A stretch of 64,000 bases of DNA, taken from Arthrobacter sp. zg-Y844. GTDB taxonomy: Bacteria > Actinomycetota > Actinomycetes > Actinomycetales > Micrococcaceae. The stretch lies in assembly GCF_024385465.1 (NCBI RefSeq), contig NZ_JANFLS010000001.1, forward strand, positions 868,001-932,000. Reading direction: 5' to 3'. Below, in pieces: positions 9,420-56,351 of the stretch (positions are counted from its first letter, which is position 1; each line of letters begins with the position of its first letter). The position numbers and the translations under genes are program-made. Under the pieces are notes generated by a model that saw only the letters and a program-made list of their open reading frames with translations, had not been told where the DNA came from and made no database searches.

Positions 9420-12385
9420 CCTACCGGATCAACAACGCCGAGGTGGAAGCCCAGCCCTTCCCCGGGCAGTGCCTGCGCACCTTCCTCCGCGAACAGGGCA
9501 ACCTGGGCGTCAAAAAGGGCTGCGACGCCGGCGACTGCGGCGCGTGCACCGTGCATGTGGACGGAAAACCCGTGCACAGCTGCATCTACCCCGCGGTCCG
9601 GGCCGAGGGCCGGGAGATCACCACCATCGAGGGGCTGGCCGACACGGCGCGGCTGGCTGGCGGCGAGGGCTTGGCCGACGGCGCGGGGCTGGCCGACGGC
9701 GCTGCCCTGCATCCGATGCAGCAGCAGTTCCTGGACGCGCAGGGCTTCCAGTGCGGGTTCTGCACCGCCGGCATGGTGATGACCGCAGCGACCTTCGACG
9801 ATCAGCAGAAGGAGAACCTGCCCCGGAACCTCAAGGGAAACCTCTGCCGCTGCACCGGTTACCGGAGCATCGAAGATGCTGTCTGCGGGCACCGGCACAC
9901 TGAAACGAGCACCGCCGGCGCCGAGCCGTCCTCCGGCGGAGCGACCCCCGCGCAGACCGGCGATGCACGGACTGTCGGCGTCAACGTGGCCGCTCCGGCG
10001 GGACCGGACATCGTCACCGGCCGCGCCCGCTACACCCTGGATGTCCCGGCCAAGGACCTGCCCGGGCTGCTGCACCTGAAGATCCTGCGCTCCCCTCACG
10101 CACATGCCCGGATCCTGTCCATTGATGCGAGCGCCGCCCTGGCCGTGCCCGGCGTTGAAGCGGTGCTCACCCACGAGGACGCCCCGGACCAGCTCTTCTC
10201 CACCGCCCAGCACGAACTGCACACCGACGACCCCGACGACACCCGGGTCCTGGACAATGTGGTCAGGTTCCGCGGCCAGCGGGTGGCCGCCGTCGTCGCC
10301 GACACCGTGGGCGCTGCGGCCGAAGGCGTGCGTGCGCTGAAGGTCGAGTATGAGCTGCTGCCCGCGGTGCTGGATCCGGAGGCGGCCCTGGCGCCCGGCG
10401 CTCCGGAGGTCCACCCCGGTACCGCCGGGAACGTCGTGGCGGAACTGCACTCCGAGGTCGGCGACGTTGCCGCCGGCCTCGCAGCGGCCGACGTCGTGCA
10501 CGAAAACACCTACTACAGCCAGCGCCTGCAGCACGTCGCACTGGAGACGCACGGCTCGATCGCGTACTTCGATGACCTGGGCCGCCTGGTGGTGCGGACC
10601 TCCACACAGGTGCCGTTCCTCGTCCGGCGGACGCTGTGCCGGATCTTCGGGCTGAAGCTTGCCTCGGTGCGCGTGCTCGCCGGCCGGGTGGGCGGCGGGT
10701 TCGGCGGCAAGCAGGAAGTGCTCACCGAGGACCTTGCCGCGCTGGCCGCGCTGAAGCTGAAGCGCCCGGTGCAGCTGGAACTGACCCGCGAGGAGCAGTT
10801 CACCGCCACCACCACCCGGCACCCCTTCGCCGTGAAGGTCCGCGCCGGAGCCTCCGCGGACGGCACCCTGACCGCGCTGGCCCTTGATGTCACCGCCAAC
10901 ACCGGCGCCTACGGCAACCACGCCCCCGGCGTGATGTTCCACGGCTGCGGGGAATCCGTGGCCGTCTACCGGTGCGCCAACAAGAAAGTGGACGCCCGCT
11001 CCGTCTACACCAACACGCTGCCCTCCGGGGCGTTCCGCGGCTACGGGCTGAGCCAGATGATCTACGCGATCGAATCCGCCATGGATGAGCTGGCCCGGGA
11101 CCTGGGCATGGATCCGCTGGACTTCCGCCGCCGCAACGTGGTGGCGCACGGCGACCGCATGGTCTCCACCTCCCCCGAACCTGCCGAAGACGTGCATTAC
11201 GGCAGCTACGGCCTGGACCAATGCCTGGAGCTGGTGTCCGGTGCGCTGGCTGCGGGGCGGGAGCAGCCGGAGACCTCCGGGGCGGAGCTTGTTTCAGCCG
11301 GGCCGTCCGGGGCGGCCGACCCGTCCGACGCGGCCGACGACGGCGGGTGGCTGATCGGTGAGGGCAGCGCCGTCGCCATGATCGACACCGTGCCGCCGCG
11401 CGGGCACATCAGCCACGCGAAGATTTCCCTGCGTGAGGACGGCCGGTACGGGCTCGACGTCGGCACTGCTGAGTTCGGCAACGGCACCACCACCGTGCAC
11501 GCGCAGCTGGCCTCGACGGCGCTGCACACCACCGCGGACCGGGTGCTGATCCGGCAGGCGGACACCGATCTGGTGGACCACGACACCGGTGCGTACGGCT
11601 CCACCGGCACGGTGGTGGCGGGCAAGGCGTCGCTGGCCGCTGCGGAGGAACTGGCCACCCTGCTCAAGGGCTTCGCCGCGTCCCTGTTTAGCTCCACCTC
11701 GGCGCAGGTGCATCTGCTGGCGGACGCCGTGGAGTGCGGCGGCGAACGGATCCCGCTGGCCGACGTCGCCGTCCGGGCCCGCGAGGAGGGCATCGACCTG
11801 TCCGCGGAGGGCCGGTGGGGCGGCACCCCGCGGTCGGTCGCCTTCAACGTGCAGGGCTTCCGGGTGGCGGTGCACGCCGGGACCGGGGAGATCCGGATCC
11901 TGCAGAGCGTGCACGCTGCGGACGCCGGCGTCGTCGTGAATCCGATGCAGTGCCGCGGCCAGATCGAGGGCGGCATTGCCCAGGCTCTCGGGGCGGCATT
12001 GTTCGAGGAGGTGCGCATTGACGCCGAGGGCACGGTGGAGACCCGGATCCTGCGCGAATACCACGTCCCCACATTCGCCGACGTGCCGCGCACAGAGATC
12101 TTCTTCGCGGAGACGGACGATTCGCTGGGACCGATGGGCGCCAAGTCCATGAGCGAAAGCCCGTTCAACCCCGTGGCGCCGGCGCTGGCCAATGCGCTTC
12201 GGGATGCCACCGGAATCCGGTTCGCCCGGACACCGTTCGCCCGGGACCGGGTGTATTTGGGGCTGCGGGCTGTCCGGGTTCCGGCCGAGGTTGCCGCGGA
12301 ACCGGAGGCTGCGGCTGAGCGGGAGACTGCGCCGGCTCCTGCCGCGCCTGCGGAACCGGAGGCTGCGCCGGCTCCTGCCGTGTAG
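9416..12385 (+). CDS. Fused [2Fe-2S]-molybdopterin subunit, probable xanthine dehydrogenase
   Basis: 989-residue catalytic subunit. Residues 1-165 are the two-cluster iron-sulfur part: Cys36, 41, 44 and 56 in the ferredoxin-like motif, and Cys113, 116, 144 and 146 in CGFC/CRC. From about 185 onward is the Mo hydroxylase fold, with [10 protein letters not shown] at about 424-433, AFRGYGLSQ and the likely catalytic Glu914 in SMSESPFNP. The GTG start overlaps the FAD-subunit stop. Fusing Fe-S to Mo while FAD stays separate differs from the common XdhA/XdhB split. An Ala/Pro/Glu-rich tail of ~35 residues ends the protein. Context favours xanthine or hypoxanthine; other N-heterocycles are possible. 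Confidence 0.85.
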
Positions 12386-12410
12386 GTCGACTGGTTTCCC
12401 TACGGTTTGT

Positions 12411-12700
12411 GCATTTTCCCTCCGGTTTGGGAAATCCCTCCGCTGCGCCGTGGCAGGGATTTCCCAAACCGGCAGGGTTTTCCCAAACCGGAGGGGTTCT
12501 GCGTCCTGCGGCGGCTCCGGCTGAGCGGGAGGCTCCGACGGTGTAGCCCGACGTCTGTAGCCCGGAGATCAGGAGCGAATCCCTGCGATCTGTCCGATTC
12601 CCTGCGGTTTGTCCGGATCCCTGCGCCGCGCGAGGCAGGATTTGTCACAAACCGAGGGGTTTTCCCGAAGCGGAGGAGTTTTGCGTCCTGCGGCGGGATG
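12411..12700. repeat. Composite palindromic intergenic repeat, copy 1
   Basis: This fills most of the gene-free 12386-12709 interval between convergent genes. Part A is a perfect 18-bp inverted repeat (12422-12439 with 12455-12472). Part B (12579-12652) has tandem ~19-bp units resembling TCCCTGCGGTTTGTCCGGA, then an inverted partner containing CACAAACC. A CTGCGTCCTGCGGCGG string occurs after each part. The arm pattern CGGTTTG-N4/5-ATCCCT is shared by both parts and by copy 2 at 15136-15240. No ORF here looks coding. Part A could also terminate the converging transcripts. Confidence 0.75.
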
Positions 12701-12709
12701 CGCCGTGGG

Positions 12710-13603
12710 CTAACCGGCCGCTGAGCCCCGAAGCGTCCGCAGCACCCCGCCGATCCTCCGCTGAACGTCCGCGGACAGGGGCCGCAGCGGGGCGGGCAGG
12801 TTCTCCACCGGCAGCAGGCCAAGCTCCGCCGCCAATGCCGAGGTCACGCGCAGGCTGCCGAAATCCCGGAACAGGTCCCAGACCGGTGCCAGCTGTGCCG
12901 ACAAACGCAGGGCAGTCTCGGCATCCCCGGCCTGAGCGGCGCGGGTGATGGCGAGCGCCAGGTCCGGGAGGGTGCCGCCCAGCACGCTGAACCACACGTC
13001 CGCGCCGGCGAGCAGGGCCGGGGCGGCAAACTCGTCGCCGCTGACCCCCAGTGCCATCCGGTCCGGCAGCGCGGCCCGCACCTCACGGATCCGCTGGTCC
13101 GCTTCGTCCACCGGCCGGGGCGGAATCTTCACGGCCTCCACCTGCGGAAGGGCGCCGAGCCGGGCATAAAGCTCGTTCGTAAACGTGAACCGGGTGGTGG
13201 TCGGATTGTCATAGATGCAGATGGGCACTGAGCTGGCGGCGGAGACGGACTCGAACAGGCCCGCCACCTCGTCCTCCGTCAGCGGCTGGTAGGACACCGG
13301 CGCGAGCAGCAGGCCGGCGGCACCGGCGTTCTGGGCATCCTCGGCTCCGCGCAGGACATCGGAGGTCCGCAGCGCCCCGATCCCCACGATCACCGGCACC
13401 TCCCCGGCCGCCTGCACCGCGGCCGCTGCCACCCGGCGTCGTTCCTCCCGGGACAGATAGGCGTAACTGCCGGTGGACCCCAACGCACCGATGGAATCCA
13501 CCCCGGCCTCCACCGCACGGTGGACCAGCGCGGCAAAGAGGTCCTCATCCACCGTGTCGTGGATAACGGGTGTCAGGGGAAAGGCGGACAGACCTGTGAA
13601 CAC
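12710..13603 (-). CDS. DapA-like lyase/aldolase of the dihydrodipicolinate synthase family
   Basis: 297-residue TIM-barrel class I lyase forming a Schiff base with a keto acid, usually pyruvate. GALGSTGSYAYLSREER (about 39-55) is the family phosphate/carboxylate loop, Tyr131 in IYDNPTTT is the proton-relay tyrosine, and Lys159 in VEAVKIPP is the Schiff-base lysine. The family includes DHDPS, N-acetylneuraminate lyase and sugar-acid aldolases, and the true substrate cannot be told from the sequence. Eleven bases separate it from the upstream EamA exporter gene, so the two are probably one transcript under the MarR-type operator at 14522-14554. Confidence 0.8.
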   Translation of the reverse strand: MFTGLSAFPLTPVIHDTVDEDLFAALVHRAVEAGVDSIGALGSTGSYAYLSREERRRVAAAAVQAAGEVPVIVGIGALRTSDVLRGAEDAQNAGAAGLLLAPVSYQPLTEDEVAGLFESVSAASSVPICIYDNPTTTRFTFTNELYARLGALPQVEAVKIPPRPVDEADQRIREVRAALPDRMALGVSGDEFAAPALLAGADVWFSVLGGTLPDLALAITRAAQAGDAETALRLSAQLAPVWDLFRDFGSLRVTSALAAELGLLPVENLPAPLRPLSADVQRRIGGVLRTLRGSAAG

Positions 13604-13614
13604 GGGAGCTCGTT

Positions 13615-14502
13615 TCAGCGTGGGGAAACCGACCGGTCCAGCACATCATGCGGGCGCACCGCCGCGGCCGTGGCACGCCGATGTCCGGCCGGCCCCGCCA
13701 GCACCAGGGTGGCAAGAACCATCGCCGCACCCAGGCACTGGCCGGGACTGAGCGATTGCCCGGCGAGCAGCCAGCCTGCGGCCGCCGCAACCACCGGGCT
13801 AAGCAGCCCCAGCAGTGCCGTGCTTGAGGCGGGCAGCCGGTGCAGGCCGCGGAACCAGAGGCAGTAGGCCAGCGCCGTGCCGATCACGCCGAGGTAGGCG
13901 TACCCCGCCAGGTTGACGCCGGTCAGTGCGGGCGGCGGACCCTCCACCAGCAGGGCCACCGGCAGCAGGAACAACCCGCCGGCGACCAGCTGCCAGGATG
14001 TGGCCGCCAGCAGCGTGTCCGGGGTGCCCCACTTTTTGGTCAGGACCACCCCGGCCGCCATGGCCACCGCTCCTCCGAGCGCGGCGGCCACTCCCAGCGC
14101 ATCCAGCCGCGCCTGCGCCTGCAGCACCAGCAGCCCGACGCCGGCCAGCCCGGCCACGCCTGCCGCTAACTTCCGTCCGGTGAGGCGTTCACCGATCCAC
14201 CGCGAGGCAAACAGCGCCACCAGCAGCGGCTGCACCGCACCAACAGTGGCAGCGACGCCGCCGGGCAGCCGGTACGCGGCCACAAACAACAGCGCGAAGA
14301 ACAGTCCGATGTTCAGCACCCCCAATACTGCCGAGCGCCACCACCAGCTGCCGCGGGGCAACCGCCGGACCAGCAGGAGCAGCAGCAGGCCCGCGGGCAG
14401 CGAGCGCAGGAGGGCGGCCAGCAGCGGCCGGTCCGGCGGCAGCAGCTCGGCGGCCACGATGTAGGTGGTGCCCCAGACGATCGGCGCCAGGGCCGTCGTC
14501 AT
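13615..14502 (-). CDS. EamA/DMT family transporter
   Basis: 295-residue drug/metabolite-transporter-type membrane protein with ten hydrophobic helices in two EamA halves, for example APIVWGTTYIVAAELLPPDR in helix 1 and GVIGTALAYCLWFRGLHRLP in the second half. Such proteins export amino acids, metabolites or drugs. The ATG at 14502 is preferred because an upstream in-frame GTG at 14529 lies inside the left operator repeat. It is divergent from a MarR regulator with a paired operator between them, a classic regulator-efflux arrangement. Confidence 0.82.
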   Translation of the reverse strand: MTTALAPIVWGTTYIVAAELLPPDRPLLAALLRSLPAGLLLLLLVRRLPRGSWWWRSAVLGVLNIGLFFALLFVAAYRLPGGVAATVGAVQPLLVALFASRWIGERLTGRKLAAGVAGLAGVGLLVLQAQARLDALGVAAALGGAVAMAAGVVLTKKWGTPDTLLAATSWQLVAGGLFLLPVALLVEGPPPALTGVNLAGYAYLGVIGTALAYCLWFRGLHRLPASSTALLGLLSPVVAAAAGWLLAGQSLSPGQCLGAAMVLATLVLAGPAGHRRATAAAVRPHDVLDRSVSPR

Positions 14503-14521
14503 AGTCAGAAGTCCAGTTTTG

Positions 14522-14554
14522 CTAAGCACTTAGCCAATATAGCTAAGTGCTTAG
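14522..14554. promoter_or_regulatory. Twin MarR-type operators between exporter and regulator
   Basis: CTAAGCACTTAG (14522-14533) and its exact reverse complement CTAAGTGCTTAG (14543-14554) are each near-palindromic and lie 21 bp centre to centre, two helical turns. They occupy the intergenic region between the EamA gene and marR, 21 bases before the marR ATG. Autoregulation and exporter control by the adjacent MarR protein are inferred from position and symmetry. Confidence 0.72.
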
Positions 14555-14574
14555 TTAATTGCTAGGGTGCTTCC

Positions 14575-15051
14575 ATGAGCGATCACGTGGACATGGTTCT
14601 CCGGCAGTGGGCAGCGGAACGGCCGGACTTGGACGTCTCCCCCATGGCCGTGGTCGGCCGGCTGTCCCGGGTGGCCCGCCGGTTCGATGAACAGCTTGCT
14701 GCAACCTTCGCCAAGCACGGCCTGGATGCGGCCTCCTTCGACGTGCTGGCCACGCTGCGCCGTTCCGGTCCGCCCTACACGCTCAGCCCCAAGGACCTCT
14801 CCGCAGGGTCCATGGTCACCTCCAGCGCCATAGCGCAGCGGTTGAACCGACTGGAGGCGCAGGGATACGTCCTGCGCTCCCCCAGTTCCGCGGACCGGCG
14901 CGGCAAGCAGGTGACCCTGACCGACGCCGGCCGGACCGCCGTCGACGCCGCCCTTCCGGACCATGTGGCCACCGAACACCGGCTGTTGAACGCCCTGGGC
15001 GACGGCGAGCGGGAGGCGCTGGCAGCACTGCTGGCCAAGCTGGACAGCTGA
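14575..15051 (+). CDS. MarR family transcriptional regulator
   Basis: 158-residue winged-helix dimeric regulator. After a short N-terminal dimerisation region come AKHGLDAASFDVLATLRRSG (helix before the reader), LSPKDLSAGSMVTSSAIAQR (HTH) and LRSPSSADRRGKQVTLTDAG, the DRR wing motif typical of MarR proteins. It most likely represses itself and the divergent EamA/DapA-like pair, released by a small-molecule ligand. A copy of the palindromic repeat follows 85 bases after the stop. Confidence 0.88.
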   Translation: MSDHVDMVLRQWAAERPDLDVSPMAVVGRLSRVARRFDEQLAATFAKHGLDAASFDVLATLRRSGPPYTLSPKDLSAGSMVTSSAIAQRLNRLEAQGYVLRSPSSADRRGKQVTLTDAGRTAVDAALPDHVATEHRLLNALGDGEREALAALLAKLDS

Positions 15052-15135
15052 CGGTTCCCTTCCGCTTGCGGGTCGGCTGCTGCAGGCCCTTCCACATTCA
15101 CGACTTCCCTGCTGGCATGGCCGTCGGACCCGGAA

Positions 15136-15240
15136 AATCCTGCGGCCTGTACGGATCCCTGCGGTTTGTCCGGATCCCTGCGGCGCGCGACGCAGGGATT
15201 GCCACAAAAGCGCAGGGATTGCCACAAACCGCAGGAAATC
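15136..15240. repeat. Composite palindromic intergenic repeat, copy 2
   Basis: Left side: two direct units, 15138-15155 and 15156-15174 (TCCCTGCGGTTTGTCCGGA), plus a partial third. After a GCGCGCGA centre, the right side has two inverted units, CGCAGGGATTGCCACAAAAG (15191-15210) and CGCAGGGATTGCCACAAACC (15211-15230). The element can fold into a stem of about 24 bp with a few mismatches. It has the same orientation and unit sequence as part B of copy 1. The rest of the 15052-15340 gap holds only the PadR promoter region. Confidence 0.75.
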
Positions 15241-15340
15241 GGCCCGGATCCCATAGCCCAGGCAGCACTGAAACAACCGTGACTTAACCGTTATATTCAT
15301 TTCTTCCCTATATTCAGTTTTTCTGACTATCGTTCAGGGC

Positions 15341-15679
15341 ATGAGCAAGCATGAGATGCGCGAGCCGACCTTCCTGGTCCTCTCGGCCCTGGCTGACGGA
15401 CCCAAGCACGGCTACGCCCTGATCGCGGAGACGAAGGACCTCTCCGGCGGCCGGGTGAAGCTGCAGCCCGGCACCCTCTACGGGGTGCTGGACCGGCTGC
15501 GGGAAGACGGATTGGTGGAGATTTCCGGCGAGGACGTGGTGGACGGCCGAGCCCGCCGCTACTACCGGATTACCGACGGCGGCGCCGCCACCCTCGCCAA
15601 GGAAGCGGACCGCCTGGCAGCCAACGCCCGGCAGGCCATGTCGAAGCTGCGACTGCGCGCAGCGCAGGCCGGAGCATGA
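15341..15679 (+). CDS. PadR family transcriptional regulator
   Basis: 112-residue winged-helix regulator with the PadR signature FLVLSALADGPKHGYALI (about 10-27), LQPGTLYGVLDRLREDGLV (about 40-58) and ARRYYRITDGG in the wing. It ends with a short dimerisation helix. The next gene starts inside its stop (ATGA), a common layout in which PadR controls its partner membrane gene. Upstream lie two TATATTCA copies at 15292 and 15309, possible promoter or operator elements. Confidence 0.88.
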   Translation: MSKHEMREPTFLVLSALADGPKHGYALIAETKDLSGGRVKLQPGTLYGVLDRLREDGLVEISGEDVVDGRARRYYRITDGGAATLAKEADRLAANARQAMSKLRLRAAQAGA

Positions 15680-17852: not shown

Positions 17853-17994
17853 TTAGACTCTGGCTGAGAAGACGCGGCGGGTCCCCGCAGCTGCACTCCG
17901 GCGGCGTCGCCGGACGGGTTCTGCCGGGACAACAGTCGACGTCCCGGAAGACATTCGGGAGCCCGTCTCCGTTTCAGAGTTGGAAGAAGTAGAA

Positions 17995-18786
17995 ATGCCC
18001 GGTTACATCCCCACGCCGCCGCCGATCCGCGTTCCGGGTCCGGTCCCGTTCGCCGGAGCGGGCCAGGCGACGACGGCGGCCCTACCCCTTATCCCCGACC
18101 TCCGCGACACGCGCCCCGCCGTCCGGGGAGGGCAGGCCGGCCCGCGCGCCCTGGAGGCGCACCGGGTGAGCGTCATCCGGGACGATCCGGGCAAAGGGGA
18201 TGTCCGGGCCCTGCTCGCAGAGAACCGCGACCTGCTGTATCCCGCGGGAACGGTAGCCGCCGGCCTGACTCCTCCGTCCCTGCGGGACCCCTCCGTCACT
18301 TTCTGGACGGTCCGCGAGGACGGCACCCTGCTGGGCTGCGGCGCGTTGAAGGAACTTCCTCCCCTGTTCGGAGGCGCAGCAGGTGAATACGGCGAAATCA
18401 CCTCGATGCGCACGGTCGAGTCCGCCCGTGGACGGGGCGTTGCCCAGATGCTCCTGCAGCAGATCATCACGAACGCCCGCGCCCGCGGCTACATCGCGTT
18501 GCTGCTGGAAACCGGAACCCAGGAGTTCTTTGCCTCGTCCAGGCGGCTGTATCAGCGTTCGGGTTTCACCCCGTGCCCGCCGTTCGGCAGCTACCGCGCC
18601 GACCCCAACAGCACCTTCATGTGCCTGGACCTGCGGGCCGCCGCGACGGGACCGGCGGAAGCCGCCGCCGTCCCGGATGCCTCCCCGGAGGGCAAGGTCT
18701 ATGCCAAGCCCGGGACCCTGACCGAAATTCTTGCAGCACAGCGAGCCCTGGCGGCGGCCCCGATCCCGAACCCGAGACGCCGCTGA
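17995..18786 (+). CDS. GNAT family N-acetyltransferase with N-terminal extension
   Basis: 263 residues: a Pro/Ala-rich, probably disordered first ~55 residues, then a GNAT fold. EYGEITSMRTVESARGRGVAQ (about 133-153) gives the beta-4 strand and the RxGxA acetyl-CoA pyrophosphate loop, and LYQRSGFTPCPPFGSYR is the usual C-terminal part of motif B. The ATG at 17995 has GGAAGAAG upstream, so the TTG 15 bases earlier is unlikely. The acceptor substrate is unknown. A hydrophilic tail of ~45 residues follows the domain. Confidence 0.75.
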   Translation: MPGYIPTPPPIRVPGPVPFAGAGQATTAALPLIPDLRDTRPAVRGGQAGPRALEAHRVSVIRDDPGKGDVRALLAENRDLLYPAGTVAAGLTPPSLRDPSVTFWTVREDGTLLGCGALKELPPLFGGAAGEYGEITSMRTVESARGRGVAQMLLQQIITNARARGYIALLLETGTQEFFASSRRLYQRSGFTPCPPFGSYRADPNSTFMCLDLRAAATGPAEAAAVPDASPEGKVYAKPGTLTEILAAQRALAAAPIPNPRRR

Positions 18787-20245: not shown

Positions 20246-21277
20246 GTGAGAATGCCCGTGGAACGACTCCTCTCCCATCTGGCACATCTGGAGATCACCA
20301 GCCCCGACGTCGAGGCCTCCACCCGGTTCTATGTCGAGAACTTCGGCATGCGCCTGGTTGATTCCCTTGACGGCGTTTCCTATCTGCGCTGCTGGGGCGA
20401 CCATTACCGGTACAGCCTGGTGGTACGGCCGGGGGAAGAACCGTCCCTGGCGAACATGGCCTGGCGCACGGCGTCCGCTGAGGCACTCGAGGCGGCGGCG
20501 GCAAATGTGGAAGCCGCCGGGGTGCAGGGCGAATGGATTCCGGGCGGGCACGCGCACGGCAAGGCCTATCAGTTCACCGGCCCCTACGGGCACCCGATGA
20601 AACTGTTCTACGAGGTGGAGCCGTACGTAGCGGAACCCGGCTGGACATCCATCTACCCGGACCGGCCCGAACGCCGGAGCAGCCACGCCGCGGCACCGCG
20701 ATTCCTGGACCATGTGACCGTGGCCAGCAGCGACGTCACCGGGTTCGCCGACTGGTACAGCGCCGCCCTGGGCTTCCGGATCATGGCTTTCACCACCTTG
20801 GACGAAGCACCGATCACGGTCTTCTCCGTGCTTACCACCAATGAAAAATCGCACGATCTGGGGGTGGTCATGGACACCTCGGGCCGGGCCGGACGCGTCA
20901 ACCACATCGCGTTCTGGGTGGACACCCATGAGGACCTGCTGCGCGCCGCGGACGTGTTGATGGAAAACGGCACCCCGATGGAATACGGACCCTCCATCCA
21001 CGGCATCGGTGAGCAGAACTTCCTGTACTTCCGGGAGCCGAGCGCTCTGCGGGTGGAACTGAACTCGGGCGGCTACCGCAACTACGTCCCCGACTGGGAG
21101 CCGCGCACCTGGACACCCTCTCAGGGATCAAACAATTTCTACCGCAACGGGGCCATGCCGCATTCGCTGACCGAATCCTTCCCGTTGGCGGACGGGTTCA
21201 CCGCCACGGAGGAAGGCGCCTCGGAGGAAATGAAACAAGCGCTGCTCAACCCCTACGCCAAGCACGGCAGGGGCTGA
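20246..21277 (+). CDS. Extradiol (catechol 2,3-type) ring-cleavage dioxygenase
   Basis: 343-residue two-domain VOC dioxygenase opening a catecholic ring next to the hydroxyls with Fe(II) or Mn(II). The N-terminal module starts LLSHLAHLEITSPDVEAS. The catalytic C-terminal module has the 2-His-1-Glu triad His156 (FLDHVTVAS), His220 (VNHIAFWV) and Glu271 (LRVELNSGGY). A GTG at 20246 or ATG at 20252 may start it; neither has a clear ribosome site. First gene of a six-gene operon, so its product feeds the hydrolases downstream. The ring substrate is unknown. Confidence 0.85.
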   Translation: MRMPVERLLSHLAHLEITSPDVEASTRFYVENFGMRLVDSLDGVSYLRCWGDHYRYSLVVRPGEEPSLANMAWRTASAEALEAAAANVEAAGVQGEWIPGGHAHGKAYQFTGPYGHPMKLFYEVEPYVAEPGWTSIYPDRPERRSSHAAAPRFLDHVTVASSDVTGFADWYSAALGFRIMAFTTLDEAPITVFSVLTTNEKSHDLGVVMDTSGRAGRVNHIAFWVDTHEDLLRAADVLMENGTPMEYGPSIHGIGEQNFLYFREPSALRVELNSGGYRNYVPDWEPRTWTPSQGSNNFYRNGAMPHSLTESFPLADGFTATEEGASEEMKQALLNPYAKHGRG

Positions 21278-21281
21278 ATCG

Positions 21282-22256
21282 ATGACCTACTCGCTGATCA
21301 CGTTTCGGGACCCGGGCACCGGCGAGCCCCGGGCCGGACTGGAAACCGGCGGCCGCGTCCTGCCGCTGACGGACGCGAACCTGGACCTGCCCGGAAACAG
21401 GGTCACCCTGGAAGCGGTGGTCGAACACTGGGACAAAGCCGAGGGCCAGTTGGACCGGCTCGCGGAAGAGTCCGCCGGTGCTGCCGCCGGCTGGCTCGAC
21501 TACGCGGACCTCACGGTGCTCGCGCCGCTGCGGCCGCAGCAGGTCCTGCAGGCCGGGGCCAATTACCGCCAGCACGTCATTGACCTGGCAGTGGCGCACC
21601 GCGACGGTGAAGGCACGGACGAGGAGATCCGGGAACGGACCGCCGCCACGATGGACCGGCGGGCCGCCGAGGGTACCCCGTACTTTTTCATCGGCCTCCC
21701 GACGGCGATGGCCTCCGCCACCGAGGACCTGGTGCTCCCCGGCTACAGCCAGGCCCATGACTGGGAGCTGGAACTCGCCGCCGTCGTCGGCAAGCGGGCC
21801 TTCCGCGTGAGCCCCGAAGATGCCCTGGAGTACGTCTTCGGCTACACGATGGTCAACGACATCACGACCCGTGACCTCGTCTTCCGCAAGGACATGCCGG
21901 CCATCGGCAGTGACTGGTACCGGTCCAAGAACGCCCCGGGTTTCCTGCCGACGGGACCGCTGGTGCTGCCGGCAAAGTTCGTGGCCGATCCGCAGGACCT
22001 CATGGTGACGCTGCGGCTCAACGGCGAAACCATGCAGGCAGAATCGACCGCCGACATGATCTTCACCGTGGCCCAGCTGGTTTCGCATGCCTCCCAGCAG
22101 ATGCCGCTGCTGCCCGGGGACCTGATCCTGACCGGCAGCCCCGCCGGCAACGGGGCCCACTGGGGACGGATGCTCCGCGACGGCGACGTTATGGAAGGCA
22201 CGATTACCGGGTTGGGAACGCAGCTCGTGCGCTGCAGGGATGAGGTGGCACCGTGA
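21282..22256 (+). CDS. Fumarylacetoacetate hydrolase family protein 1
   Basis: 324-residue FAH-superfamily enzyme acting on the ring-cleavage product as hydrolase, decarboxylase, isomerase or hydratase. LQAGANYRQHVIDLA (about 87-101) and AHDWELELAAVVGKRAF (about 153-169), with its ExE metal ligands, plus PLLPGDLILTGSPAGNG (about 274-290), are the family landmarks. It starts five bases after the dioxygenase and overlaps the next gene by four bases (GTGA). Which reaction it performs cannot be told from sequence alone. Confidence 0.82.
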   Translation: MTYSLITFRDPGTGEPRAGLETGGRVLPLTDANLDLPGNRVTLEAVVEHWDKAEGQLDRLAEESAGAAAGWLDYADLTVLAPLRPQQVLQAGANYRQHVIDLAVAHRDGEGTDEEIRERTAATMDRRAAEGTPYFFIGLPTAMASATEDLVLPGYSQAHDWELELAAVVGKRAFRVSPEDALEYVFGYTMVNDITTRDLVFRKDMPAIGSDWYRSKNAPGFLPTGPLVLPAKFVADPQDLMVTLRLNGETMQAESTADMIFTVAQLVSHASQQMPLLPGDLILTGSPAGNGAHWGRMLRDGDVMEGTITGLGTQLVRCRDEVAP

Positions 22257-23263
22257 CCGGAATCAATGCCGAAGACCAGGAGATGATCCGCCGCGACGAC
22301 GCGCTGGGAAGCATCGAGGCGATGGCTGCTGCGCACAACAACTGGGGGCGCTGGGGGCCGGATGACGTCCTGGGCACCCTGAACTTCATCGATGAGGCCA
22401 AGCGGGTGGAGGCAGCCCGGCTGGTCCGCACCGGCCAGACGTTCTCCCTGTCCCAGCCGTTCAATACCGACGGTCCGCAGAAGGGCTGGCGCCGCCGGAT
22501 CAACCCCGTCCACACCATGACCGACACCGGCACGGAAGCGGAGTTCGGCAACCAGGGCTTTCCGCACGGCATCGGAGGCGCCGACGACTTCATCGCGATG
22601 CCGCTGCAGTGCTCCACGCAGTGGGACGGGCTCGGCCACATTTTCGACCGGGGAAAGGCCTGGAACGGCCGGCGGGCGGGTGCGGTGGTGACCAGCGAAG
22701 GCGACCAGCTCACCGGAATCCAGACCGCGGCGGCCCGGATCGTCACCCGGGGCGTGCTGCTCGACGTCGGCCGGGCACTGGGACCCGGCGCGGGCAGCGG
22801 CGACGGGGAGCTGCCGGACGGATTCGCCATCACCGCCGAGCATATCGAGGCCACCATCGAGCAGCAGGGGCCCAGCTCGGAGATCCGGCGCGGTGACATC
22901 GTGGTGCTGCGCACCGGCCAATACGCCCGGACCCTGAGGCAGGGGTGGGGGGACTACGCAGGCGGGCCGGCGCCGGGACTGTCCTTCAGCATGGCGCCCT
23001 GGCTGCACCGCAGCGAGATCGCCGGAATCGCCACCGACACGTGGGGGTTCGAGGTCCGGCCGAACGAATTCGACACCGCGTTCCAGCCGCTGCACCAGAT
23101 CGCCATCCCCAACCTGGGCCTCTATCTGGGCGAAATGTGGGATCCGGAGCAGCTTGCCGCGTCCTGCGCGGCGGACGGCCAATATGACTTTCTGCTGACG
23201 GCGGCCCCGCTGCCCATCACCGGCGCCGTCGGCTCGCCGGTCAATCCCATCGCCGTGAAATAA
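22253..23263 (+). CDS. Cyclase family (kynurenine-formamidase-like) metal hydrolase
   Basis: 336-residue protein of the cyclase/KynB-like fold. The usual metal motif HxGTHxD reads here as QCSTQWDGLGHIF (about 118-130), keeping the Asp and a later His but replacing the first histidines, so the metal site is a variant. HNNWGRWGPDDVLGTLNFI near the N-terminus is typical of the long cyclase subfamily found in aromatic and lactone pathways. Translation is coupled to the FAH gene through a GTG start. It probably hydrolyses a lactone, amide or ring-cleavage intermediate. Confidence 0.75.
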   Translation: MTGINAEDQEMIRRDDALGSIEAMAAAHNNWGRWGPDDVLGTLNFIDEAKRVEAARLVRTGQTFSLSQPFNTDGPQKGWRRRINPVHTMTDTGTEAEFGNQGFPHGIGGADDFIAMPLQCSTQWDGLGHIFDRGKAWNGRRAGAVVTSEGDQLTGIQTAAARIVTRGVLLDVGRALGPGAGSGDGELPDGFAITAEHIEATIEQQGPSSEIRRGDIVVLRTGQYARTLRQGWGDYAGGPAPGLSFSMAPWLHRSEIAGIATDTWGFEVRPNEFDTAFQPLHQIAIPNLGLYLGEMWDPEQLAASCAADGQYDFLLTAAPLPITGAVGSPVNPIAVK

Positions 23264-23307
23264 GCCGATACATAATCCGCCGGAATGAAAACAAAGGAGT
23301 TTGCATC

Positions 23308-24435
23308 ATGGCAGCTGTGAACAGGGTAGGCATTGTCGGGTCGGGCGCAGCCGGATTAACGGCGGCGATTCTGCTGGCCGACGCCGGCGTGGACGTGGAA
23401 GTCCTGGAGAAGGAAGCGGCCCCGTCCCCGCTCGGCTCCGGCATCACCCTGCAGGGCAACGCCCTGCGGATCTTCCGGCACCTCGGCATCTGGGACGAAA
23501 TTGCCGCCAAGGGCTTCGCCTTCAGCGAGCTCGGCTTCCGCGCACCGGATCCGGCAGGAACCGTGCTGTCCGTGGTTGACGACGTCCGGACCGGCGGGCC
23601 GGACCTGCCCGCCACCCTGGGCATGTACCGGCCGGACCTTACCGACGCGCTCCGGCGCCGCGCCGCCGATGCCGGAGTACGGATCAGCTACGGCAGGCGG
23701 CTCAAGGGGGTGGAACAGGACACGGGTTCAGTCACCGTCATTACCGACGACGGCGACCGCCTTCCCTATGACCTGCTGATCGGCGCCGACGGACTGCACT
23801 CGGCGGTGCGGGCCGCGATCGGGATCACCACCGAACCGGAGCCCACCGGAATGGGAATCTGGCGGGCGTTCGTGGACCGGCCGGCCGATGTGGTCCGCAC
23901 CGATCTGACCTACGGCGGGCCCTGCTACATTGCCGGGTACTGCCCCACCGGCCAGGACAGCATGTACGCCTATCTGGTCGAGGACGCCCAGGAGCGCAGG
24001 GTGGAGGACGGACCGGAGATCATGGCCGGACTCGCGGCAGCCTACGGCGGGCCGTGGACGGAGATCCGGGCCGGCCTGGACCACAGTGCGCGGATCAACT
24101 ACACCCGGTTCACTGCGCACTTGGTGGACGGACCCTGGAACCGCGGCAGGGCCGTGATTATCGGCGATGCCGCCCACAGCTGCCCGCCCACCATCGCCCA
24201 GGGGGCAGCCATGGCCGTGGAAGACGGAGCCGTCCTGGCGGATCTGCTGACCAGCCGGGAAACGCTGGATGACTCCCTCTGGACGGCCTTCACGCAGCGA
24301 CGGCTGGAACGGGCCCGCACCGTCATCCGCGGATCGGTGCAGCTGGGACAGTGGATGCTCGAAGGACGGATGCGGGACGCCGACGTCCCGGGCGTGATCG
24401 CCACCGTAGCGGCAACCGTGAGCCAGCCCGCATGA
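23308..24435 (+). CDS. FAD-dependent aromatic monooxygenase
   Basis: 375-residue class A flavoprotein hydroxylase, like salicylate or 6-hydroxynicotinate monooxygenases, using NAD(P)H to hydroxylate or decarboxylatively hydroxylate an aromatic acid. It shows VGIVGSGAAGLTAAILLADA (FAD Rossmann, GxGxxG, about 7-26), LIGADGLHSAVR (DG motif) and AVIIGDAAHSCPPTIAQGAA (GD motif). An AAAGGAG site precedes the ATG. It probably makes the catechol or hydroquinone opened by the first gene of the operon. Its stop overlaps the next start (ATGA). Confidence 0.85.
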   Translation: MAAVNRVGIVGSGAAGLTAAILLADAGVDVEVLEKEAAPSPLGSGITLQGNALRIFRHLGIWDEIAAKGFAFSELGFRAPDPAGTVLSVVDDVRTGGPDLPATLGMYRPDLTDALRRRAADAGVRISYGRRLKGVEQDTGSVTVITDDGDRLPYDLLIGADGLHSAVRAAIGITTEPEPTGMGIWRAFVDRPADVVRTDLTYGGPCYIAGYCPTGQDSMYAYLVEDAQERRVEDGPEIMAGLAAAYGGPWTEIRAGLDHSARINYTRFTAHLVDGPWNRGRAVIIGDAAHSCPPTIAQGAAMAVEDGAVLADLLTSRETLDDSLWTAFTQRRLERARTVIRGSVQLGQWMLEGRMRDADVPGVIATVAATVSQPA

Positions 24436-25550
24436 CCGGAAAAGAGTCCCTGCCCGCGGTGGTGGACGTCCATGCCCACGTGGTCCTGCCGGCGCTGCAG
24501 GAGTATGTGGCGGCCTGCGCTCCGGCGGAGTTTGCTGCCGCGCAGGAACTCGATGCCCGCCGGCAGGGACCCGAATCGGTGAAAATCTCCGGCGCCATGA
24601 TCCGGGAACGCTGGCCGCGGCTGGTGGACCTGTCCCGGCGGCTCGCGGACATGGATGCCGCGGGAGTCGACGTGCAGCTGGTCTCTCCCTCGCCGTCGCA
24701 CTATTACTATTTCGCCGGCCTGGAGCTCGGCGGGGAAATCGCCCGCCGCGCCAACACCGCGGTCATGGAGCTGGTGGCGTCCGCCCCCGGCCGGCTTGCG
24801 GGGCTGGGACTTGTTCCGTTGCAGCACCCGGAGGCCATGGTCGCGGCCCTGGAGCATGCGGTGCTGGACTGCGGCCTGCTGGGGGTGGAAATCGGGTCCT
24901 ACGCCCCCGGATTCGGGCGTCTCCCCGGGCAGGAACCGAACGCCGGGACCGTGGAACTGTCCGACGCCCGCCTGGAGCCTTTCTGGGCCCGGGCCGAAGA
25001 ACTCGGAGCGCTCGTTTTCCTGCACCCTTTCGGCTGCTCGCTGGATGAGCGGCTGGACCGGTTCTACCTGGCGAATACCGTCTCGCAGCCGGCGGAGAAC
25101 GCCGTCGCCCTTTCCCACCTGATCTTCGCCGGGGTGCTGGACCGCTACCCGGAGCTGCGGATCATCGCGGCGCACGGCGGCGGCTACCTGCCCAGCACGC
25201 TCGGCCGGTCCGACCATGCCTGGCGGGTCAGGCCGGACGCACGCGTGTGCGCTGCCCCGCCGTCGTCGTACATCAGCCGCCTGTGGTTCGACTCGCTCAC
25301 CCACAGTCCTGCTGAACTGCGCGCACTGGCCGGGGCCGCCGGGGCGGACCGGATCCTGCTGGGCTCCGACTACCCGTTCGACATGGGCTCGGAAGACCCC
25401 GTAGGGGACGTCCGGGCCGCCGGTCTTTCCCTCGGGGAGGAACAGGCACTCCTCGCCGGCAATGCCGCAGCGCTCGGGATCCGGGCCGGCCGTGCCGAGG
25501 CCGGCGCCAGTAGTGCCGCACCCAGGGAAGGAATTGAAATCGATGGTTAA
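24432..25550 (+). CDS. ACMSD-like amidohydrolase family decarboxylase
   Basis: 372-residue TIM-barrel metalloenzyme of the amidohydrolase_2 group, which includes ACMS, gamma-resorcylate and 2,3-dihydroxybenzoate decarboxylases. VVDVHAHVVLP has the HxH zinc pair, LVFLHPFG and IAAHGGGYLP give two more histidines, and LLGSDYPFDMG has the catalytic Asp. Removal of a ring or semialdehyde carboxylate fits the operon. The ATG at 24432 is chosen for its overlap with the monooxygenase stop. Confidence 0.83.
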   Translation: MTGKESLPAVVDVHAHVVLPALQEYVAACAPAEFAAAQELDARRQGPESVKISGAMIRERWPRLVDLSRRLADMDAAGVDVQLVSPSPSHYYYFAGLELGGEIARRANTAVMELVASAPGRLAGLGLVPLQHPEAMVAALEHAVLDCGLLGVEIGSYAPGFGRLPGQEPNAGTVELSDARLEPFWARAEELGALVFLHPFGCSLDERLDRFYLANTVSQPAENAVALSHLIFAGVLDRYPELRIIAAHGGGYLPSTLGRSDHAWRVRPDARVCAAPPSSYISRLWFDSLTHSPAELRALAGAAGADRILLGSDYPFDMGSEDPVGDVRAAGLSLGEEQALLAGNAAALGIRAGRAEAGASSAAPREGIEIDG

Positions 25551-26547
25551 GCTCGCACGCTGGAACGACGGCGGTGAGGTCCGCTCCGGCTTCATCCATG
25601 AGGACCGGGCCTACGGGCTTCCCGGAGGACAGACTGCCAACGACCTGCTCGAGGCCGGGTTGGACGAGACCCTGGCAACCGCGGAACGGGTCATCGGAGC
25701 CGCCTCGTCCGCGCCGCTGTCCGCCGTGGTGCTGCTGGCTCCGCTGGTGCCGGCCACCCTGCGCGACTTCGTTGCCTTCGAGGAACACGTGGAGGGGATG
25801 CGGATCAGCATCGACGGCGCGCCCGGCGTTATGGAGGAGTGGTACCAGGCCCCCACGTTCTACTTCAGCAATCCGCACACCATCCGGGCCACGGGTGAGG
25901 AGATTCCCATCCCGGCCGGCTGCAGCCAACTGGATTTCGAGACGGAGGTCGCCGCCGTCATCGGGCGGGTTCCCGGCAGCAGCGGCAGCAACCTCAGCGC
26001 AGCGCAGGCGCAGCAGCACATCTTCGGTTACACCGTCTTTAACGACTGGTCCGCCCGGGACCTGCAGCGCCGGGAGATGAAGGTCAGCCTGGGTCCGTGC
26101 AAGGGAAAGGACTTCGCCGGCACCCTGGGTCCGTGGATTGTCACTGCCGACGAATTCGCTCACCGGTACGACTCCGACGGTTTCCTGGCCCTGCAGATGA
26201 GCGTGGACGTTAACGGGTCTCGGGTCGGAGAGGATCTGCTGTCCAATATGGGCTGGCCGTTTGCCGAGCTGGTTGCCTACGCGTCGCAGGATTCCCGGGT
26301 GCTTCCGGGCGACGTGCTGGGGTCCGGCACCTGCGGCAGCGGCTGTCTTGCCGAACTGTGGGGACGCCTCGGTGATCAGGCTCCGCCTCCCCTGCAGACG
26401 GGGGACAGCGTCAGCATGACGGTGGAGGGCATCGGCACCATCACGAACACCGTGGGACCCCGTCGTGAAGCATCCACCCTGGTGCGTGCCCGGCCCCGGC
26501 AGCGCCTGCCGCGCAGTTACGACGGCGCCGCGGCGGCGCGGGGCTGA
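25543..26547 (+). CDS. Fumarylacetoacetate hydrolase family protein 2
   Basis: 334-residue FAH-family protein, only distantly similar to the first copy. LDFETEVAAVIGR (about 145-157) supplies the acidic metal ligands, HIFGYTVFNDWSARDLQRRE and LGPCKGKDFAGTLGPWIV are the acylpyruvase/fumarylacetoacetase-type core, and SGTCGSGC replaces the usual SGTxxG loop. It overlaps the amidohydrolase by eight bases and has AAGGA upstream. Likely the terminal C-C bond hydrolase of the pathway. Its stop falls within a 29-bp tandem duplication. Confidence 0.82.
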   Translation: MVKLARWNDGGEVRSGFIHEDRAYGLPGGQTANDLLEAGLDETLATAERVIGAASSAPLSAVVLLAPLVPATLRDFVAFEEHVEGMRISIDGAPGVMEEWYQAPTFYFSNPHTIRATGEEIPIPAGCSQLDFETEVAAVIGRVPGSSGSNLSAAQAQQHIFGYTVFNDWSARDLQRREMKVSLGPCKGKDFAGTLGPWIVTADEFAHRYDSDGFLALQMSVDVNGSRVGEDLLSNMGWPFAELVAYASQDSRVLPGDVLGSGTCGSGCLAELWGRLGDQAPPPLQTGDSVSMTVEGIGTITNTVGPRREASTLVRARPRQRLPRSYDGAAAARG

Positions 26548-26585
26548 ACGTCAGGGCCGCGGCGGCGCGGGGCTGAACGTCAGGG
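26528..26585. repeat. 29-bp perfect tandem duplication spanning convergent stop codons
   Basis: Bases 26528-26556 are repeated identically at 26557-26585. The first copy holds the stop of the FAH gene and the second holds the stop of the convergent LysR gene. Each copy contains both potential stops, so a deletion to one copy would make the two genes overlap. Confidence 0.9.
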
Positions 26586-27536
26586 CTGCGGTGGACCGCC
26601 GACCTCCGCCAGGCGGGTCACGACGGTGCTCTCCGGGTGCCGCTGGGCGCAGGCGCGCTGGACCACGGAACGGAGCCACAGGCTCGCCGGGTCTTCGGCT
26701 CGGCTGGGGTGCCAGAACATGGCCTCCACCAGCACAGGTTCCGTTTCCGCGGGAAATTCGATGATCGAAATCCCTGCTCCCCGCTGCGATTTGAGGGCGA
26801 GCATTTTCGGAACCACCGCCACCAGGTCCGTCCCTTCGACGAGCAGCGGGAGGGCAAGCAACCCGGATACCTGCGCAGCGACCCGGCGTTGAATTCCCAG
26901 CGTTTCCCAGAAGAGGTCCGCAGGGGTTTTGATCGATGCGCCGAAGTTGCCCACCGCGTGCGGGAGCCGGCCCAGGTCCTCCGCACGGAGGGGGTCCGCC
27001 TGCAGGATGGGGTTCCCGGAATCGACCACCGCCACAAAGCTGTCCCGGAAGACCGCCTTTTTCTCCCCGGGCAGGGAGTACCCGGTGGGTCCGACCATCA
27101 GGTCGCAGCGGGTGAAATCGGCCTGATGCAGGGGCATCGCATCCCCCGAGACAACGTTCACGCTGACACCGGGTGCCTCGACCTGCAGGATGCCGCGCAG
27201 CGGTTCCAGAATCACCGTTGCTGCGTAGTCCGACGCTGCGATGGTGAACTCGCGGTCGCTGGTGAAGGGATCGAACCTGCTCCGGATGCCGGTGACCCGG
27301 TCCAGGCCCTGCAGCGCTTCGTCCACCAGCGGGACCAGATCCTGCGCCAGCGGGGTCAGCTCGAAGTGCCTGCCGGAACGGACGAGCAGCTCGTCGTCGA
27401 AATAGCGGCGCAGCCGGGAAAGGGCGGCACTTGCAGCCGGTTGACTCAGCTGCAGGTGTTCCGCCGTCCTCGAGACGTTGCGCAGCCGGAGCAGGGCCTG
27501 AAGCGTCGGCAGGAGGTTCAGATCGATGGACTTCAT
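26580..27536 (-). CDS. LysR family regulator, NahR/NodD type
   Basis: 318-residue activator. SIDLNLLPTLQALLRLRNVS with TAEHLQLSQPAASAALSRLR (about 3-42) is the LysR winged HTH in its NodD/NahR/LinR form, followed by a periplasmic-binding-like effector domain. The ATG at 27536 is chosen because the domain begins there; upstream in-frame sequence is not conserved in style. It lies between the catabolic operon and the importer operon and probably senses the pathway substrate or an intermediate. Confidence 0.87.
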   Translation of the reverse strand: MKSIDLNLLPTLQALLRLRNVSRTAEHLQLSQPAASAALSRLRRYFDDELLVRSGRHFELTPLAQDLVPLVDEALQGLDRVTGIRSRFDPFTSDREFTIAASDYAATVILEPLRGILQVEAPGVSVNVVSGDAMPLHQADFTRCDLMVGPTGYSLPGEKKAVFRDSFVAVVDSGNPILQADPLRAEDLGRLPHAVGNFGASIKTPADLFWETLGIQRRVAAQVSGLLALPLLVEGTDLVAVVPKMLALKSQRGAGISIIEFPAETEPVLVEAMFWHPSRAEDPASLWLRSVVQRACAQRHPESTVVTRLAEVGGPPQP

Positions 27537-27606
27537 GCGGGACAGCATAGGCGAGCGGCTACTTGGCTCGTCTTCTTCCCATCGGGGCGGTTGGGCCGTC
27601 CTTCCA

Positions 27607-51590: not shown

Positions 51591-52564
51591 GCGGTTCCTG
51601 ACGGTGCGGATTCCGGTGCCAGACGGGCAGGCCGGTTCAGCAGCAGCTCCCGCGCGTTCAGGGCGGCTCCGATGAAGCCGGCGTCCTGGCCCAGCCGGGC
51701 GCACAGGAGGTGCGGACGCCGGGCAGATCCCAGCAGCCGGTCCAGGCGCTCGCGCAGGGGAACCAGGAGGGCATCACCGGCCTGGGACAACCCGCCGCCG
51801 ATGATGAAGGCTTCCGTCCCAAGAATGTTGGCGCACTGGGCGATGCTGAAGGCGAGGGCGTCCACGGCGTCGCCCCAGACCCGCCGCGCCACCGCATCCC
51901 CCTGAAGAGCGCGGTCTGCCACCTCCCGGGCGCCGTCCATCTGGTGCCCCGCCTGTGCCGCATACCTCCGGGCGATGGCCGCGGCGGACGCCACGGATTC
52001 CAGCGTGGCAGTACCGGTCAGCGAACCGGCCGGGACAAGGGCCTGCCCGATTTCGCCGGCATACCCCCCGGCCGTGACCCGTTTGCCCTCGCAGAAAACG
52101 GCGGCGGCGATCCCGGTTCCGATGACGATGACCAGGACATCCCGGAAGTCCTTCGCCCCGCCCAACCGCACTTCCGCGTCTCCGGCGGCAGCGACGTCGT
52201 GTCCAAACGCCACGGGGATTCCCAGCCTTCGTTCCGCTTCCTCCGCAAAGGGATAGTTCCGCCAGCCGAGGTTGGCGGAATAGACAGCGGTTCCCGTGCC
52301 CGGGTCAACAATCCCGGGCACGATCACTCCCGCGGCCTCGATCCGGCTTTCGGGCAGCTCGCTCCTAAAGTCGCGGGCAAGCGCCGCGATCCGGTCCAGC
52401 ACTGCCTCTGCGGGCCTGGCCTTGTCGAGGGGAGTCGGAACACGGCAGAACGCCTGCAGCCGGCCCGAGGGTCCGACCACTCCTGCCTTGATGTAGGTTC
52501 CGCCGACGTCGAAGGCCAGGACCGTTGAAGATCCGGCACCGAGCGATATGGCTGGTAGGGACAT
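51587..52564 (-). CDS. ROK family sugar kinase
   Basis: 325-residue ATP-dependent kinase predicted to phosphorylate imported N-acetylhexosamine at O-6. VLAFDVGGTYIKAGVVGPSG is the phosphate-1 motif, GIPVAFGHDVAAAGDAEVRL holds the catalytic Asp, and VLVIVIGTGIAAAVF the adenosine site. The usual ROK zinc-binding Cys cluster is absent: the segment reads GGYAGEIGQALVPAGS. It is coupled to nagA, and 87 bases separate it from the upstream DUF4832 gene. Confidence 0.85.
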   Translation of the reverse strand: MSLPAISLGAGSSTVLAFDVGGTYIKAGVVGPSGRLQAFCRVPTPLDKARPAEAVLDRIAALARDFRSELPESRIEAAGVIVPGIVDPGTGTAVYSANLGWRNYPFAEEAERRLGIPVAFGHDVAAAGDAEVRLGGAKDFRDVLVIVIGTGIAAAVFCEGKRVTAGGYAGEIGQALVPAGSLTGTATLESVASAAAIARRYAAQAGHQMDGAREVADRALQGDAVARRVWGDAVDALAFSIAQCANILGTEAFIIGGGLSQAGDALLVPLRERLDRLLGSARRPHLLCARLGQDAGFIGAALNARELLLNRPARLAPESAPSGTA

Positions 52565-54433: not shown

Positions 54434-54453
54434 GATTCTCCAGATGTCGAGGA

Positions 54454-56347: not shown

Positions 56348-56351
56348 GGCA

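What the first reader, a model, noticed from the sequence alone, without database searches (positions are those of the whole stretch)
12411..15240. Same palindromic repeat bounds a DapA-like/EamA/MarR block on both sides
Copies at 12411-12700 and 15136-15240 share tandem units like TCCCTGCGGTTTGTCCGGA followed by inverted partners, in the same orientation, and occur nowhere else that I can see in the window. They enclose exactly the three-gene block 12710-15051. Multi-unit inverted repeats of this type may be REP-like mobile elements or recombination borders, and the block may be a movable cassette.
Basis: seen in the sequence. Interest (0 to 1): 0.52.

Follow-up and report, generated by a model that had tools for sequence, protein, structure and literature searches.

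The report
Genus-specific palindromic repeat arrays between genes
The block is bounded by three copies of a palindromic repeat array found at about twenty intergenic sites in this Arthrobacter genome and in every genome held of its genus; the arrays are mostly fixed in place, while the three-gene block between them has been moved, cut down or partly lost in related species.

Summary
The repeat is real and far from chance, but not confined to this block. It is an array of 19-bp units (CCCTGCGGTTTGT plus 6 bp) pointing inwards at a central palindrome. The genome (Arthrobacter) holds at least 23 array cores; 22 were examined, all 22 intergenic. All 29 held genomes of the genus carry the family, but only 1-2 of 32 genera sampled in its family do. 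No Y1/RAYT transposase was found in 24 genomes, 16 of the genus. In five related species 51 of 58 array stretches match a G000 array locus, so arrays are mostly inherited in place while unit number and unit sequence ("dialect") change. The dapA-EamA-MarR block is variable: intact in four genomes, truncated, moved or partly missing in five. Between two strains of one species a segment at another locus is swapped with both ends at arrays. Yet at 18 other loci array gaps change little more than other gaps (11 of 37 vs 22 of 134, p=0.10). Most likely: a REP/NIME-like array family, probably bound by an unknown protein, and only locally a cassette border.

The parts
12398..12495 (.). Array 1 (type 2 dialect): inward units at 12398 and 12418, palindromic centre near 12437-12458, outward partners to 12495
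   Evidence: fold z -5.9
12581..12659 (.). Array 2 (type 1 dialect, >>o<): units at 12581 and 12600, centre 12619-12640, partner 12647; degenerate tail to about 12690
   Evidence: fold not better than shuffles
15138..15236 (.). Array 3 (type 1, >>o<<): units 15138 and 15157, centre 15176-15197, partners 15205 and 15224
   Evidence: fold z -4.9
12710..13603 (-). DapA-like (DHDPS family) gene of the bounded block, 297 aa
   Evidence: PF00701 4.3e-32; below the NCBIfam cut-off for true dapA
13615..14529 (-). EamA-type transporter gene, 304 aa; only a remnant in G306, G008 and A. zhaoxinii
   Evidence: PF00892
14575..15051 (+). MarR-family regulator gene, 158 aa
   Evidence: PF12802

Best explanation
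The repeats are copies of a genus-specific, REP/NIME-like family of intergenic arrays. SHOWN: 19-bp-phased units face inwards on a central GC-rich palindrome. There are about 20 sites per genome in the richer species (only one or two in the poorest). Sites are mostly inherited in place among near species, core sequence is more conserved than its flanks, unit number varies, and lineages differ in unit 'dialect'. INFERRED: units and centre are recognised by a sequence-specific protein (a dimer, or a hairpin binder) that changes together with the sites. This would keep the palindrome and the dialect while replication slippage changes unit number. SHOWN LOCALLY: the dapA-EamA-MarR locus is a plastic site whose gene modules have been lost, moved or replaced in relatives, with breakpoints often at the arrays. 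INFERRED: arrays, being alike across species, can serve as homology anchors or break-prone hairpins for recombination. This is an occasional consequence rather than a general function.
For: Exact unit pattern 34 vs 0 control; 23 cores at E<=1e-5 (my count, which scored 150 of 4143 candidates); 22 of 22 arrays examined intergenic by my gene finder, 2 divergent. Genus: 29 of 29 genomes. Family: 23 of 295 genomes with R1, all one genus; 13 of 197 with R2, 2 of 32 genera. Flanks with the array masked match a G000 array locus in 51 of 58 stretches from five species. Core identity exceeds the near flank in 31 of 31 ortholog pairs, averaging 0.90, against 0.784 for paralogous cores. The centre stem covaries across 24 elements from 21 genomes: 82.3% of cells paired vs 73.9 +/- 1.8, 0 of 500 shuffles; 18 cells changed on both sides vs 8.1, 0 of 500; slid controls 34-53%. 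Dialect: unit position 5 is C in 15 of 16 half-sites of G019 but 4 of 40 in G000. 3' of one conserved gene, 14 of 28 loci have a palindrome scoring above all 60 shuffles, 19 by eye, with differing sequences. Locus plasticity. Same-species swap bounded by arrays.
Against: No binding protein was identified and none can be named. Within the window's clade the arms do not covary (2433 of 3264 cells paired vs 2494 expected) and spacers anti-correlate. One measure is weak: 7 of 9 pairs with double changes is reached by 51 of 500 shuffles; and the elements were found with models whose consensus is palindromic. Cores were picked by likeness to a consensus, which raises their identity. G002 shows no within-genome homogeneity (0.698 within vs 0.700 against G000). 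Deep positional conservation fails for most distant arrays: G019 2 of 7, G020 0 of 3, G007 0 of 2. The border effect is not general: array gaps changed in 11 of 37 vs 22 of 134 others, p=0.10; counting only gaps with an array in G000, 7 of 33.
Confidence: 0.5

Rival explanations
1. Selfish REP/MITE-like repeats moved by a transposase not recognised here. Dialects are subfamilies that spread in turn and replace older copies; no host function.
For: Dispersed, intergenic and palindromic; extended similarity beyond the core among some copies, seen by eye (G012 C6, C7 and C15; G000 C4:357747); two unit types coexist in one genome; few positions shared with distant species.
Against: No Y1/RAYT gene in 24 genomes (16 of the genus), 5 of 14 controls positive; no GTAG/CGTC tag excess; no fixed ends; no simple insertion seen: the one lineage-specific array followed up stands where relatives have about 1 kb of other DNA; positions conserved among five nearer species. 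Other transposase families were not searched for.
Confidence: 0.27
2. Recombination borders as the main role: arrays are homology anchors that delimit exchangeable gene cassettes, as proposed for Neisseria repeat arrays, and the dapA-EamA-MarR block is such a cassette.
For: Window locus: junctions with arrays broken 10 of 12 vs 19 of 134 without. Of 21 gaps touching an array, 15 have both ends within 96 bp of one. A PadR2 module is array-bounded in G306, G008 and G002. G240/G000 swap with both ends at arrays between flanks 97-100% identical.
Against: With a matched control (gaps of 80 bp or more, four species) the window test rests on two junctions (6 of 8 vs 7 of 32, p=0.008). At 18 other loci the effect is weak (11 of 37 vs 22 of 134, p=0.10; 7 of 33 counting G000 arrays only). 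73 of 94 gene-content gaps have no array within 200 bp.
Confidence: 0.13
3. RNA-level elements: bidirectional transcription terminators or mRNA 3'-end stabilisers.
For: Strong hairpins in two of three window arrays; only 2 of 22 in divergent gaps; centre stem covaries.
Against: No T-tailed hairpin in any of 22 arrays; no terminator-like site in 12300-15400; arms do not covary within the clade; terminators would not be expected to share a dialect; up to about 18 units (L198); no Rfam family reached its gathering score.
Confidence: 0.1

Closest known systems
REP / BIME / REPIN with RAYT (GTAG and CGTC super-families)
   Same: Short dispersed intergenic palindromes, often as inverted doublets or clusters, lineage-specific
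   Different: No Y1 RAYT in 24 genomes, no tag excess, about 20 sites, 19-bp phased units around one centre, positions conserved between near species. The words Arthrobacter and Actinobacteria do not occur in PMC3733652 (word search and passages seen); REPIN paper PMC3116915: abstract and outline seen
Neisserial intergenic mosaic elements (NIME: dRS3 20-bp inverted repeats plus RS units)
   Same: Intergenic repeat arrays of short inverted-repeat units next to variable genes, suggested to promote local gene exchange (PMC3898611, passages seen)
   Different: dRS3 is ATTCCC-N8-GGGAAT, almost 700 copies, and a phage integration site; here other sequence, about 20 sites, no linked phage sought, and no general excess of exchange
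Minimal mobile elements (whole-gene cassettes between conserved genes, exchanged by homologous recombination)
   Same: Different gene modules between the same conserved neighbours in different species
   Different: Defined by conserved flanking genes, not by repeats; recombination route here inferred only
MIRU-VNTR type dispersed minisatellites of mycobacteria (recalled, no call)
   Same: Dispersed at fixed intergenic loci, unit number differs between strains
   Different: MIRU units are longer direct repeats without a palindromic centre (recalled)

Membership tests
REP/REPIN with RAYT | Y1 (IS200/IS605-type) REP-associated transposase in the genome | tested here: not met
   PF01797: 0 of 24 genomes including own, 16 of them in the genus; 5 of 14 control genomes positive
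REP/REPIN with RAYT | GTAG or CGTC tag at one end of the palindrome | tested here: not met
   8 of 22 arrays have a tag within 20 bp outside, random pieces 45%
REP/REPIN with RAYT | Dispersed palindromic repeats in intergenic space | tested here: met
   22 of 22 arrays examined intergenic; 23 cores
NIME-like repeat array | Intergenic array of short inverted-repeat units | tested here: met
NIME-like repeat array | Neisserial dRS3/RS sequence | tested here: not met
   unit CCCTGCGGTTTGT-N6 by sequence against ATTCCC-N8-GGGAAT
NIME-like repeat array | Raised exchange of adjacent genes | tested here: inconclusive
   Strong at the window locus, weak elsewhere, one clean same-species case
MITE | Fixed terminal inverted repeats and target-site duplication at an empty site | tested here: inconclusive
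   Ends vary with unit number; one lineage-specific array stands in place of about 1 kb rather than at an empty site
Intrinsic terminator | Hairpin followed by a T-rich tail | tested here: not met
   0 of 22 arrays; none in 12300-15400
Exchangeable gene cassette (minimal mobile element) | Different whole genes between the same conserved neighbours in different strains or species | tested here: met
   interval between the xanthine-dehydrogenase-like and the glycosyltransferase-like gene
Exchangeable gene cassette (minimal mobile element) | Incorporation by homologous recombination | not testable with these tools
   Only end products seen

The most novel reading that the evidence does not exclude
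The arrays are the chromosomal sites of an undescribed, fast-evolving DNA-binding system confined to this Arthrobacter genus. A protein reads both the 19-bp unit and the central palindrome, its specificity drifts by species, and all dispersed sites follow it (dialects at orthologous sites). Arrays bounding genes then also act as preferred joints for gene exchange between species.
Probability: 0.22. Interest if true: 0.7.

Novelty: new variant of a known kind. Interest (0 to 1): 0.42.

Why it matters
The best studied short palindromic repeats of bacteria are tied to RAYT transposases. Here is a family in which none was found: mostly fixed at conserved sites among near species, yet with unit sequences that differ between lineages. 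That makes co-evolution of dispersed sites with an unknown binding factor directly testable. The same arrays sit at the ends of a gene swap between two strains of one species, so they may influence which genes get exchanged.

Tried and rejected
RAYT search: 0 of 24. Rfam at E<=1: seven matches, none near its gathering score. Polarity: inner spacers are often of two kinds, CCGG on one side and GNCA on the other (59 of 80 cores typed on both sides; 22 of the 102 distinct cores, from 119, could not be typed). This counts orthologs repeatedly; in G000 alone it is 11 of 14. It does not follow replication direction in G240, G015 or G306. In one search I assumed some loci were turned, which is wrong for L170; corrected, G240 reads 7 vs 4.

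Array-free interval around the terminus (G240 1.48-2.10 Mb, dnaA at 0.46 kb): by my arithmetic a gap of that size is expected by chance for about 20 sites, so rejected. Solitary units as a regulon: at up to 3 mismatches 170 matches vs 79 for the control pattern, and the excess is largely the arrays, so not pursued.

General cassette-border function: looked strong from the window locus (p=1e-6), shrank with a matched control (p=0.008 on two junctions), a first look outside the window showed mostly unchanged neighbours, and the test at 18 other loci was not significant. I therefore demoted it.

Literature: sequence strings gave 4 papers, unrelated by their titles; concept searches listed no description of this family (two returned nothing). 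RepRanger (PMC12306157, passages seen) gives only a table row for A. livingstonensis. That is a statement about the held library only.

Labels PadR, GNAT, glycosyltransferase, lipoprotein and AbiEi-like for neighbouring genes are recalled from the look of the sequences and come from no call.
Full report
OBSERVATION. The window holds three copies of a palindromic array: 12398-12495, 12581-12659 and 15138-15236. Each is built from inward-pointing units, CCCTGCGGTTTGT plus six bases, repeated every 19 bp, on both sides of a GC-rich palindrome (TCCCTGCGCCGCGCGGCGCAGGGA in the consensus). The first array uses another unit form (CCGGTTTGGGAAAT). Seven of eight window matches to the unit core lie in these arrays; no shuffle reached eight. 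The arrays fill the two intergenic gaps that bound the DapA-like, EamA and MarR genes.

EXTENT IN THE GENOME. The exact core occurs 34 times in the genome against 0 for the reversed pattern. A sequence-only covariance model, R1, built from 21 cores finds 23 separate cores at E<=1e-5 (my count; a lower bound, since 150 of 4143 candidates were scored). I examined 22 of these 23 (C1:858765 was left out): all 22 are intergenic, lying in 20 gaps, 8 convergent, 12 codirectional and 2 divergent, with genes from a simple codon-bias finder of mine. Across the stretches fetched, arrays range from about 3 units to about 18, counted at up to 4 mismatches.

EXTENT IN RELATIVES. R1 matched 24 of 39 genomes, all in the window's genus (24 of its 25, 0 of 14 others), and 23 of 295 in the family, one genus of 32 (stricter filters). 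A second model, R2, built from 24 elements of 21 genomes, matched 29 of 29 genomes held of the genus, with numbers from 1 match (G018, G021) to over 60 (both strands counted), and 13 of 197 in the family, where the only outsider was one genome with two weak matches. Named relatives are Arthrobacter sp. zg-Y238, A. yangruifuii and A. zhaoxinii.

POSITIONS ARE MOSTLY CONSERVED, SEQUENCES ARE DIALECTS. I fetched stretches around the stronger arrays listed for five near species. With arrays masked, flanks match a G000 array locus in G012 15 of 18, G015 16 of 18, G306 7 of 8, G008 10 of 11 and G293 3 of 3. For more distant species it is G002 5 of 7, G004 1 of 2, G019 2 of 7, G020 0 of 3 and G007 0 of 2. 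Orthologous cores are more alike than their 100-bp flanks in 31 of 31 pairs and average 0.90, although cores were picked by likeness to a consensus; paralogous cores in G000 average 0.784. In G019, unit position 5 is C in 15 of 16 half-sites and the corresponding centre position in 16 of 16, against 4 and 3 of 40 in G000; G002, however, is not more alike within itself (0.698) than to G000 (0.700). 3' of a conserved 313-aa gene (28 of 29 genomes at 56% identity or more, some in pieces), 14 of 28 loci carry a palindrome scoring above all 60 shuffles. By eye I count 19, with 6 lacking one and 3 not assessable. Their sequences differ between lineages.

STRUCTURE. Across 24 elements of different dialects the centre stem covaries: 82.3% of cells paired vs 73.9 +/- 1.8 (0 of 500 shuffles), 18 cells with double changes vs 8.1 (0 of 500), slid controls 34-53%; the count of pairs with double changes (7 of 9) is weaker, 51 of 500. 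Within the window's clade the arms do not covary (102 distinct cores, 2433 of 3264 cells vs 2494 expected). So symmetry of the centre is kept over long times, while units look conserved as sequence. No array has a T-tailed hairpin (0 of 22).

NO KNOWN MOVER. PF01797 is absent from 24 genomes, 16 of the genus, with 5 of 14 controls positive; other transposase families were not searched. Tags of the GTAG/CGTC super-families are not enriched (8 of 22 vs 45%). One array, G015:3265649, does not fill an empty site: G015 has 166 bp between the matching flanks, where G012, G306 and G008 have about 1.06-1.34 kb and no array match is listed in that interval; for G000 and G240 one flank matches and, in the rows listed, little or nothing of the other.

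THE BLOCK. It is complete, between the xanthine-dehydrogenase-like gene and PadR and with arrays on both sides, in G000, G240, G012 and G015 (in G015 with a second PadR module between the right array and PadR). G306 has DapA with only the last 52 residues of EamA, an array about 77 bp further on, then a second PadR module bounded by arrays. G008 has an EamA remnant of 47 residues and no DapA in the stretch. G002 has EamA and MarR without DapA in the stretch. A. zhaoxinii and A. yangruifuii carry DapA about 5 kb away, where the window has another gene (17980-18786), with a desaturase where the window has the block; A. zhaoxinii has an array and an EamA remnant there, A. yangruifuii has no array in 12.9 kb. 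In ten pairwise comparisons of 64-80 kb, 21 of 94 gene-content gaps have an array within 200 bp of a boundary, and 15 of these 21 have both ends within 96 bp of one; alignments shorter than 150 bp were dropped, which limits the resolution. Junctions with an array were broken in 10 of 12 cases vs 19 of 134; restricted to gaps of 80 bp or more in four species, 6 of 8 vs 7 of 32, p=0.008, resting on two junctions.

A CLEAN SAME-SPECIES CASE, AND ITS LIMIT. G240 is of the window's species; the array stretches compared are mostly 95-99.5% identical. At C4:356.6-357.8 kb the flanks are 97-100% identical. The segment between arrays is 65-71% identical over the 313-aa gene, and in G240 it also holds an alpha/beta-hydrolase gene with a further array. 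Identity breaks off and resumes within about 50 bp of the arrays. Yet at 18 other loci (17 with an array in G000) compared with G015 and G306, array gaps changed in 11 of 37 against 22 of 134 other gaps (p=0.10), and in 7 of 33 counting only arrays present in G000. Exchange at arrays happens, but is not what arrays generally mark.

VERDICT. The finding is a copy set of a genus-wide REP/NIME-like array family for which no RAYT was found. The 'movable cassette' reading is partly right for this locus and not general. What maintains the dialects is unknown; a co-evolving binding protein is my preferred inference, unproven.

Noticed in passing
14522-14554: A perfect 13-nt inverted repeat (CTAAGCACTTAGC / GCTAAGTGCTTAG) lies in the divergent gap between EamA and MarR, a likely MarR operator.
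   Followed up: no
12710-13603: Outside Arthrobacter the nearest DapA-like relatives found are in Pantoea (51-56% identity), suggesting lateral transfer; the search reaches close relatives only.
   Followed up: partly
L184:1700-4000 (G240) and L068:860-2340 (G000): A 313-aa gene without Pfam or NCBIfam match at the thresholds used, present in 28 of 29 genomes of the genus, has strongly diverged alleles between arrays in two strains of one species.
   Followed up: partly
L019:269-400, L002 about 1655-1715, L020 about 1615-1675, L130 about 1405-1455: A second dispersed repeat (GGCGGCTTTAAT...CTGCGAGC...GTTGCCGCC, in L019 with a 45-bp tandem) lies next to several arrays.
   Followed up: no
20252-31144: Ten consecutive genes of the window are missing from the orthologous G015 stretch, with no array at the ends.
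   Followed up: no
50469-63993: Twelve predicted genes have no close match (55% or more) in the G306, G015, G012 and G008 stretches, though some stretches may end too early; three have relatives at 70-97% in G002. Possibly a lineage-specific island.
   Followed up: no
L190:2445-3070 and L237:2340-3000: In G012 and G306 whole arrays with spacer are repeated four times at about 160-220-bp intervals.
   Followed up: no
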